DNA of 64,000 nucleotides from Ischnura elegans (Eukaryota > Arthropoda > Insecta > Odonata > Coenagrionidae): positions 1 to 64,000 of the forward strand of contig NW_025791696.1 of assembly GCF_921293095.1 (NCBI RefSeq), read 5' to 3'. A program made the translations under genes and the position numbers. How positions within the stretch are numbered: the first letter of the stretch is position 1; each line of letters begins with the position of its first letter. The notes under the pieces were generated by a model. The model saw only the letters and a program-made list of their open reading frames with translations, ran no database searches and was not told the origin of the DNA. This document shows positions 32,919 to 33,243 of this stretch, one piece after another.

Positions 32919-33243
32919 CTCTACATGGTTTTCGCGTTAGCTGTGTCGAAGTTGTTTTTAGGATGACGTTTCGTGGCCTATGCTGGCCACATCTTCAGAT
33001 CAGGTCTGCCACTTGGAATGGATAGGCAAAGTGATCAATTCACCCGTGCAAACATTAGAGGAGCTAACACAAAAGGAGACCTAATTTTTTTGGATCTAAT
33101 TAGTGTCATTGAAAATATTTGTTGATGGACTCAATTAAACAGTCTTTTTCAAACAAAGTACACGAAACGAAGCTCAAAGGTGGAATGCCGAAACGTCATC
33201 CTGAAAACTTCTTCGACGCAGCTAACCCGAAAACCATGGAGAG
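32919..33243. mobile_element. Foldback MITE with about 55-bp TIRs
   Basis: The left arm CTCTACATGGTTTTCGCG through GGATGACGTTTCG pairs with the right arm CGAAACGTCATCC through AAAACCATGGAGAG. The left arm ends in a hammerhead-like motif on the minus strand. Interior sequence 33030-33190 recurs at 33596-33755. Confidence 0.7.
32965..32998 (-). ncRNA. Hammerhead-like core, copy 3 (best formed)
   Basis: On the minus strand: CTGAAGA (32998-32992), spacer T, perfect stem GTGGCC/GGCCAC with 6-nt loop AGCATA, then GAAAC (32972-32968) and GTC. All core boxes of a hammerhead are present apart from the extra spacer base. Confidence 0.5.

What the first reader, a model, noticed from the sequence alone, without database searches (positions are those of the whole stretch)
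32965..32998. Covarying hammerhead-like motif repeated across the window
Five clear places (702-732 plus; 26323-26348 plus; 32965-32998, 35515-35544 and 37328-37359 minus) and a weaker sixth (63663-63693) share CTGANGA, one spacer base, a stem-loop and GAAAC. The stems are different sequences (GTAAC/GTTAC, GTGGCC/GGCCAC, GTTGGTG/CACCGGT, GATGTCCG/CGGACTTC), yet pairing is kept, which is compensatory evidence for a structured RNA. The boxes equal the hammerhead core (CUGANGA, GAAA). Hammerheads are established in Penelope-like retroelements. What differs here is a consistent extra nucleotide between the first box and the stem, and a location in or beside foldback elements. The GAAAC-GT(C) end leaves a minimal third stem, so activity may need a dimer.
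Basis: partly seen in the sequence, partly recalled or inferred. Interest (0 to 1): 0.7.

Follow-up and report, generated by a model that had tools for sequence, protein, structure and literature searches.

The report
Penelope retroelement hammerhead ribozymes in foldbacks
The repeated motif is a real RNA fold, a small hammerhead-type (self-cleaving class) RNA carried near the end of Penelope-like jumping elements that are very common in this genome; the kind is already known, but the copies examined show a one-short-end, one-long-end pattern that hints at how these elements copy themselves into both DNA strands.

Summary
Six window places have CTGANGA, one spacer base, at least 4/5 stem pairs and GAAAC; 0.01 expected by chance. 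Helix II covaries. Among 100 places fetched, 96 have exactly one spacer base, none has no spacer, 4 are unclear. In three copies the motif follows an ORF; two ORFs were scanned: both hit GIY-YIG, one also RVT_1. This is the minimal type I hammerhead of Penelope-like elements (PLEs), published since 2014 and titled as cutting as dimers. Foldbacks are PLE insertions with inverted ends, also known. A sharper point, not found in the papers I could read: in 26 of 26 foldbacks with apparent target duplications of at least 11 bp, one 3' end stops 41-67 nt after the motif and the other 77-102 nt, suggesting target-primed copying on both strands from two different start sites. New member of a known kind. 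Cleavage was not testable; helix I covariation could not be tested.

The parts
698..738 (+). PLE minimal hammerhead: helix I AGCC/GGCT, CTGATGA, spacer T, helix II GATTT/AAACC (one mismatch), GAAACGTT (cleavage expected after GTT)
415..788 (.). PLE foldback holding that motif: outer arms 415-468 / 737-788, inner palindrome 527-694; right end tailed, left end without tail
408..419 (.). left target-site duplication CAAAATTGTATT of the foldback
828..839 (.). right target-site duplication CAAAATTGTATT
26323..26348 (+). hammerhead-like motif, CTGAAGA + C + GTAAC/GTTAC + GAAAC, followed by CCGGGTC (ACCCGGGU is a perfect 8-nt palindrome); membership doubtful
   Evidence: not listed up to E=10 by the family model
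26227..26412 (.). palindromic element that holds the motif at 26323
   Evidence: I15, 94% complementary
32965..32998 (-). hammerhead motif of another subfamily: CTGAAGA + T + GTGGCC/GGCCAC + GAAACGTC; one identical copy elsewhere in the genome (contig C9)
   Evidence: weak with the main-family model (E 0.82)
32917..33245 (.). foldback that holds it; right arm keeps only GAAACGTC; by comparison with the C9 copy one end reaches about 85 nt and the other about 50 nt past the motif
35515..35544 (-). hammerhead-like motif with GAAACTGTC, left arm of a foldback
   Evidence: not listed up to E=10 by the family model
35679..35709 (+). decayed partner motif, right arm of the same foldback (35454-35772)
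37320..37363 (-). hammerhead motif, AGCC + CTGAAGA + C + GATGTCCG/CGGACTTC + GAAACATCGGC; minimum-energy fold has both stems, with the spacer C paired to the G of GAAA
   Evidence: (27.6 bits)
37273..37515 (.). foldback that holds it
63659..63699 (+). PLE minimal hammerhead with spacer A, followed by the PLE end motif GACC..ACTCCAGGAA; no inverted partner found in 62501-64000

Best explanation
The motif is the minimal type I hammerhead ribozyme of endonuclease-bearing Penelope-like retroelements (PLEs). Shown here: hammerhead core boxes around a covarying helix II with one spacer base before it, a short helix I in the main family, position downstream of the RT + GIY-YIG ORF on the coding strand in three copies, and dispersal in insertions flanked by apparent target-site duplications of 11-16 bp. 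Inferred: the self-complementary ACGU next to GAAA makes helix III between two copies, so two motifs (two RNAs, or two units of one tandem RNA) form a double hammerhead that cuts after GUU or GUC and trims PLE RNA to unit length. The window copies are passengers in insertions, mostly foldback-shaped; such insertions arise when both nicked target strands prime reverse transcription near the 3' end of PLE RNA, one at the 'short' and one at the 'tail' start site. Several window copies are decayed and may be inactive.
For: Six window sites against 0.01 expected, with exactly one spacer base. 2406 strict genome places, reversed control 0. Helix II: all 5 pairs have both-side changes; covariation score 0.385 against 0.026-0.089 when slid (21 sequences). 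Register: of the 100 strict places fetched, 96 pair best with one spacer base (T 76, A 12, C 8), 0 with none, 4 unclear. G right after CTGANGA occurs in only 6 places (its span is one base longer than that): in 4 of these the G is itself the spacer, 1 (L237) pairs best without a spacer, 1 is unclear. The motif lies 181-253 nt after the ORF end in L033/L003, L034/L019 and L035/L005; Pfam: L003 RVT_1 + GIY-YIG, L019 GIY-YIG, a foldback interior (L014) RVT_1 below the curated cut-off. 97 of the 100 places examined: 50 have an inverted partner, making 38 distinct foldbacks; 36 of the 50 share a word of 11 nt or more across their flanks against 27 of 2426 mismatched flank pairs. 26 of 26 foldbacks with such words have one short and one long end. 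PMC11167929 (main text read): an Anolis PLE protein cuts and extends both strands, starts reverse transcription at two adjacent sites, 'tail' being the sequence between, and has a protein-assisted hammerhead.
Against: Rfam gives no hammerhead hit in the window at gathering threshold or at E up to 10. As single strands only 37320 folds with both stems, 32960 with helix II, and 26319 with helix II plus an outer stem that uses core letters; 698, 35508 and 63659 do not fold so; only 32960 and 37320 fold clearly better than most of their shuffles (4 and 13 of 200 shuffles reach them). In the folds of 32960 and 37320 the spacer U or C pairs with the G of GAAA, which would take away a core letter; 84 of 96 spacers (T or C) could do so, 12 (A) could not. 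Core and helix I were fixed by the search pattern, so their conservation in the genome set is not independent evidence, and the relaxed search did not complete. No cleavage or transcript data. In the Anolis system ribozyme mutants still insert in vitro and no reads end at the cut site (PMC11167929), so cleavage may be dispensable. Window sites 26323 and 35515 are not listed by the family model and 32965 only at E 0.82.
Confidence: 0.88

Rival explanations
1. The motif is kept as a hairpin or protein-binding feature (for example part of the RNA site recognised by the PLE protein) and not for self-cleavage.
For: Anolis PLE insertion in vitro does not need ribozyme activity (PMC11167929); the motif sits about 40-100 nt from insertion ends; 50 of 97 places examined are in foldbacks; the spacer U or C may pair with the core G.
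Against: A plain hairpin does not call for CTGANGA on one side and GAAAC on the other at a fixed spacing, yet stems of unrelated sequence have both. This is weakened by the fact that the copies were found by these boxes.
Confidence: 0.2
2. The foldbacks are MITE-like DNA transposons whose terminal inverted repeats happen to hold the motif.
For: Inverted arms and target-site duplications; the 26227-26412 palindrome may really be such an element.
Against: Duplication words of variable length (11-16 bp), two ends that differ by 27-52 nt at the PLE 3' end in 26 of 26 foldbacks, one interior with PLE RT sequence.
Confidence: 0.05
3. Chance matches in an AT-rich, repeat-rich window.
For: The pattern without the stem has 11 matches with 0.71 expected, and several of the 11 have no stem, so it is not fully specific; 139 matches of a near pattern in virus and prokaryote contigs are mostly without a stem (5-bp stems at registers 0, 1, 2 in 2, 2, 6 of them).
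Against: 0.01 expected against six found with stems; 2406 genome places against 0 reversed.
Confidence: 0.02

Closest known systems
Minimal type I hammerhead ribozymes of Penelope-like elements (Cervera and De la Pena 2014; Lunse, Weinberg and Breaker 2017: only titles in reference lists seen; full texts not held)
   Same: Hammerhead without a proper helix III, thousands of copies in metazoan genomes, link to PLEs, possible cleavage as dimers (passages of PMC7761336, PMC6155905, PMC7229834, PMC6466107)
   Different: One spacer base between the core and helix II in this genome; whether the published consensus has it could not be checked
Poseidon PLE of Anolis carolinensis (PAc, PMC11167929; main-text section read whole, other passages)
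   Same: RT + GIY-YIG element with a hammerhead, a 30-40 bp tail between two reverse-transcription starts; the ORF is said to begin at the start of stem II with C3 and G8 before the start codon, which would fit CUGAAG-AUG, that is, the same spacer U (my inference)
   Different: In PAc no difference in start site between the two strands was seen in vitro; here foldbacks use one of each in 26 of 26
Adineta vaga Penelope elements (PMC3846280; passages read)
   Different: Self-priming on an antisense template is preferred there; hammerhead not mentioned (0 occurrences); no count over many foldbacks in the passages read
Chrysanthemum chlorotic mottle viroid plus-strand hammerhead (PMC3705267, passage; De la Pena and Flores 2001, title only)
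   Same: An extra nucleotide in the otherwise conserved core
   Different: An extra A in a viroid; its exact position I recall and did not read. Here mostly U, also A or C, rarely G
Metazoan retrozymes (PMC7229834; passages)
   Same: Type I hammerheads in repeated elements
   Different: Those are small tandem repeats with canonical type I hammerheads; here dispersed ends of a PLE

Membership tests
Hammerhead ribozyme, minimal type I | CUGANGA and GAAA boxes on either side of helix II | tested here: met
   more often than chance together with a stem; the copies were found by these boxes, so their strict conservation is not shown independently
Hammerhead ribozyme, minimal type I | Helix II pairs, with compensatory changes | tested here: met
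   85.7% of cells paired, 5 of 5 helix II pairs with both-side changes
Hammerhead ribozyme, minimal type I | Helix II directly after CUGANGA | tested here: not met
   one spacer base in 96 of 100 fetched places; one exception without spacer (L237) among the 6 places. One or two inserted nucleotides there are within reported hammerheads (PMC10085705, passage)
Hammerhead ribozyme, minimal type I | Helix I pairs | tested here: inconclusive
   AGCC/GGC in the 2406 places because the pattern asked for it; GAT/ATC at 32965 and GAT/GTC in its C9 copy by eye; relaxed search unanswered
Hammerhead ribozyme, minimal type I | A15.1-U16.1 and cleavable H17 (GUU or GUC) | tested here: inconclusive
   GAAACGTT or GAAACGTC at 698, 63659 and 32965; GAAACATC at 37320; GAAACTGTC at 35515; GAAACCCGGGTC at 26323. 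Pairing between two molecules is inferred
Hammerhead ribozyme, minimal type I | Self-cleavage | not testable with these tools
   needs RNA chemistry
Hammerhead ribozyme, minimal type I | Match to an Rfam hammerhead model | tested here: not met
   no hammerhead family listed up to E=10; that these models expect a proper helix III is recalled
Penelope-like element (endonuclease-bearing) | Reverse transcriptase domain | tested here: met
   RVT_1 6.2e-08 in L003
Penelope-like element (endonuclease-bearing) | C-terminal GIY-YIG endonuclease | tested here: met
   7.4e-05 (L003), 9.1e-06 (L019)
Penelope-like element (endonuclease-bearing) | Target-site duplication and optional tail | tested here: met
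Penelope-like element (endonuclease-bearing) | pLTR-ORF-pLTR tandem with the motif in each pLTR | not tested
   the three PLE copies looked at hold one sense motif each in the stretch fetched (L034 also an inverted one); tandem copies were not searched for
Metazoan retrozyme | Small tandem repeats with canonical type I hammerhead | not tested
   no tandem search was run on the loci

The most novel reading that the evidence does not exclude
The ribozyme's self-complementary ACGU makes an RNA dimer, and that dimer, not only the cleavage, is what the element needs: a PLE protein dimer brings two RNAs (or two units) to the two nicked target strands, one primed at the short start and the other at the tail start, so each two-strand event gives a foldback with exactly one short and one tailed end. 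The foldbacks would be footprints of a two-template target-primed insertion.
Probability: 0.12. Interest if true: 0.75.

Novelty: new member of a known kind. Interest (0 to 1): 0.42.

Why it matters
The role of minimal hammerheads in PLEs is called unknown in a review (PMC7761336, passages). This genome gives a large natural series (at least 2406 strict copies) in which ribozyme, tail, start site and target duplication can be read together. The one-short, one-tail pattern in foldbacks is a simple, checkable statement about how PLE proteins prime both strands; in vitro work on one element reported no difference in start site between the strands.

Tried and rejected
Rfam at gathering: nothing; at E up to 10: 24 hits, none a hammerhead, most of them microRNA-type hairpins, among them the palindromes at 527-694 and 26.3 kb. 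PDB search with the PLE ORF: nothing. Folding single motifs was uninformative for A/T-rich copies. A cofold of two copies of one motif gave -17.5 against -6.7 kcal/mol for one, but the predicted pairing was not the hammerhead, so it is not used. A GACCY...RGGTC stem between motif and tail (GACCT/AGGTC in most, GACCC/GGGTC in the L019/L030 family) is visible, but single-sequence folding supports it only in some copies. Whether both foldback arms come from one RNA: arms are 95-100% alike in 13 of 16 compared; L023 joins arms of two subfamilies (86%), L016 is 87%, L037 is cut short (75%). Duplications at the other window foldbacks: only 8-9 nt words or none.

Full report
What was checked. The bare pattern CTGANGA-N8-30-GAAAC has 11 matches in the window against 0.71 expected. 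Asking in addition for a stem of at least 4 of 5 pairs, exactly the six named places remain when one base separates CTGANGA from the stem, none when no base does, and only an overlapping re-reading of the first when two do; simulated sequence with the same first-order composition gives 0.01.

The motif in the genome. The window lies in a 1.72 Gb genome of unnamed origin. A strict form with a four-base first helix, AGCC-CTGANGA-N10-30-CGAAACGTTGGC, has 1212 forward and 1194 reverse exact places and none for the reversed pattern. On 21 rows (19 genome places chosen for variety from those fetched, one of them outside the strict pattern, and two window sites) 85.7% of cells pair, all five helix II pairs show changes on both sides, and the covariation score is 0.385 against 0.026-0.089 for slid versions. 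The 100 listed places, all fetched, have 34 different inner sequences; 96 pair best with one spacer base (T 76, A 12, C 8), none best without one, and 4 are unclear. A near-equal pattern with G straight after CTGANGA has 6 places: in 4 the G is itself the spacer, in one (L237) the stem follows directly, one is unclear. So the spacer is nearly but not wholly universal. Limits: the pattern fixed the core and helix I, so these are not independent evidence in that set, and the window sites were found by the two boxes. In the minimum-energy folds of the 32965 and 37320 sites the spacer U or C pairs with the G of GAAA; T and C spacers could all do this, the 12 A spacers could not.

What carries it. 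Upstream of the motif, on the same strand, L033 has a 527-codon open stretch; its last 417 codons (scanned as L003) match RVT_1 (6.2e-08) and GIY-YIG (7.4e-05); L034 (L019) has a GIY-YIG end (9.1e-06); L035 (L005) has two pieces like the L003 protein by eye, not scanned; the interior of foldback L014 has RVT_1 at 4.6e-06, below the curated cut-off. In L033, L034 and L035 CTGANGA starts 253, 181 and 250 nt after the end of the ORF. This is an endonuclease-bearing Penelope-like element. Whether most of the 2406 places belong to PLE copies was not tested one by one; a shared 3' end (GACCTAAACTCCA or similar) follows most of those read.

Foldbacks. I fetched the 100 places listed, which are those of the first 95 Mb of contig 1 and not a random sample (the 20 regions have shorter flanks, about 500 bases). 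Three were dropped because the stretch around the motif is identical to that of another place, leaving 97. Of these 50 have an inverted partner upstream, making 38 distinct foldbacks, with the 3' ends outward; 47 have none found within the stretch held, though L037, counted among these, is by eye a foldback cut short on one side. Thirty of the 38 have exactly one recognisable tail; seven have none (L020, L025, L042, L049, L050, L221, L225), at least some because my tail patterns do not cover their families; one (L044) was scored for two, of which one match lies beyond the insertion as bounded by its duplication. Words of 11 nt or more are shared by the flanks of 36 of 50 places against 27 of 2426 mismatched flank pairs. 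In the 26 distinct foldbacks with such a word, taken by hand from the table, the distances from motif to word are 41-67 on one side and 77-102 on the other, always one of each. Places without a partner and with such a word are long in 11 cases and short in 9, with one at 73 and one (L037) where the word is the tail itself; here the search reached 1500 bases upstream and had no control, so some words, such as those of L031 and L220, are probably chance. Each kind of end is thus common by itself. If the two ends of a foldback were independent, 26 mixed pairs would have a probability of about 1e-8. The 12 foldbacks without an 11-nt word were left out of this count: L011, L022 and L225 look mixed by shorter words; L028 and L213 gave words that are probably inside the element; the other seven gave none.

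Window copies. The 702 site is the right arm of a foldback with a 12-bp duplication, CAAAATTGTATT, at 408-419 and 828-839; its right end is tailed, its left end is not, and the left arm has lost the motif. The 32965 site is in the left arm of a foldback 32917-33245; an identical motif sits on contig 9, and alignment to that copy reaches about 85 nt past the motif on one side and about 50 on the other, again one long and one short. The 35515 site has a decayed partner at 35679-35709 in a foldback, and the 37328 site lies in one too. The 63663 site belongs to the main family but no inverted partner was found in 62501-64000. The 26323 site is in a 94% palindrome that may be another kind of element; its GAAACCCGGGTC would give an eight-base self-complementary third helix, which is suggestive but isolated.

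How it probably works. Shown: helix II structure, association with PLE coding sequence in three copies, dispersal with target duplications, end asymmetry. Inferred: two motifs join through ACGU and cut after GUU/GUC, as the title of Lunse and colleagues says for such variants (paper not held; cited in PMC6466107 and PMC7761336, passages). In the Anolis element the ribozyme is active only with the PLE protein and is not needed for insertion in vitro (PMC11167929, main text read), so its role in the life cycle remains open. That paper also reports cutting and extension of both target strands and two reverse-transcription starts with no difference between strands. The pairing of one short and one tailed end in genomic foldbacks suggests that when both strands are used the two starts are not chosen independently. 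One foldback, L023, joins arms of two subfamilies, so there two different RNAs probably served as templates; in 13 of 16 the arms are 95-100% alike, which fits one RNA or two RNAs of one source.

What is known. Minimal hammerheads in PLEs, their great number and possible dimer action are published. Inverted pLTRs with a tail on one of them and target duplications are described for Adineta (PMC3846280, passages), where self-priming is preferred. I found no statement of the 26-of-26 kind in the papers read; the searches were in an open-licence library that lacks the two main papers, and the work cited for the tail in PMC3846280 (its reference 16) was not read, so this is weak evidence of novelty. 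The spacer base is probably shared with the Anolis element, since its start codon is placed at the start of stem II with G8 before it; that is my inference, and the published consensus could not be checked.

Verdict. Real, well supported, and of a known kind. The extra base is a consistent variant. The most useful new point is the end pattern of the foldbacks.

Noticed in passing
window 46323-47465 and 52056-52505, minus: Pieces of a rhodopsin-family receptor gene (7tm_1 3.6e-11; the second piece 4e-04, below cut-off); duplicated stretches 50990-51323 / 52540-52876 at 90-94% lie nearby.
   Followed up: partly
window 49580-50320, minus: Possible reverse transcriptase remnant of another retroelement (RVT_1 1.9e-04, below cut-off).
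   Followed up: partly
window 4107-4792, 5755-6403, 38459-39068, inverted 26664-27325 and 32101-32350: A repeat family of up to about 650 bp, stretches 65-94% alike, with CGTACTCCAGGAGTAATAATC near one end; not identified.
   Followed up: no
window 527-694: Near-perfect palindrome inside the PLE foldback, like the inner palindrome of L009/L010 by eye; scores as several microRNA precursor families, all below their gathering scores.
   Followed up: partly
window 26227-26412: Palindromic element whose arms both hold TGAAGAYGTAACCACGTTACGAAACCC; in the right arm GAA is followed by the 8-nt palindrome ACCCGGGT. Could be a DNA element or an unusual hammerhead with a long dimer helix; genome search unanswered.
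   Followed up: partly
window 28004-28216 and 10521-10720: Two further hairpin-shaped inverted repeats (95% and 80% complementary).
   Followed up: no
L023 (G000:C1 about 18.066 Mb): A PLE foldback whose two arms belong to different subfamilies, suggesting two template RNAs in one insertion.
   Followed up: partly
L237 (G000:C7:82383386-82383426): The one strict place found whose helix II follows CTGANGA without a spacer (5 of 5 pairs).
   Followed up: no
3' ends of PLE copies, e.g. L015, L030: A possible stem GACCT/AGGTC (GACCC/GGGTC in one family) around the short start site, with ACTCC following its 5' side in most copies.
   Followed up: partly
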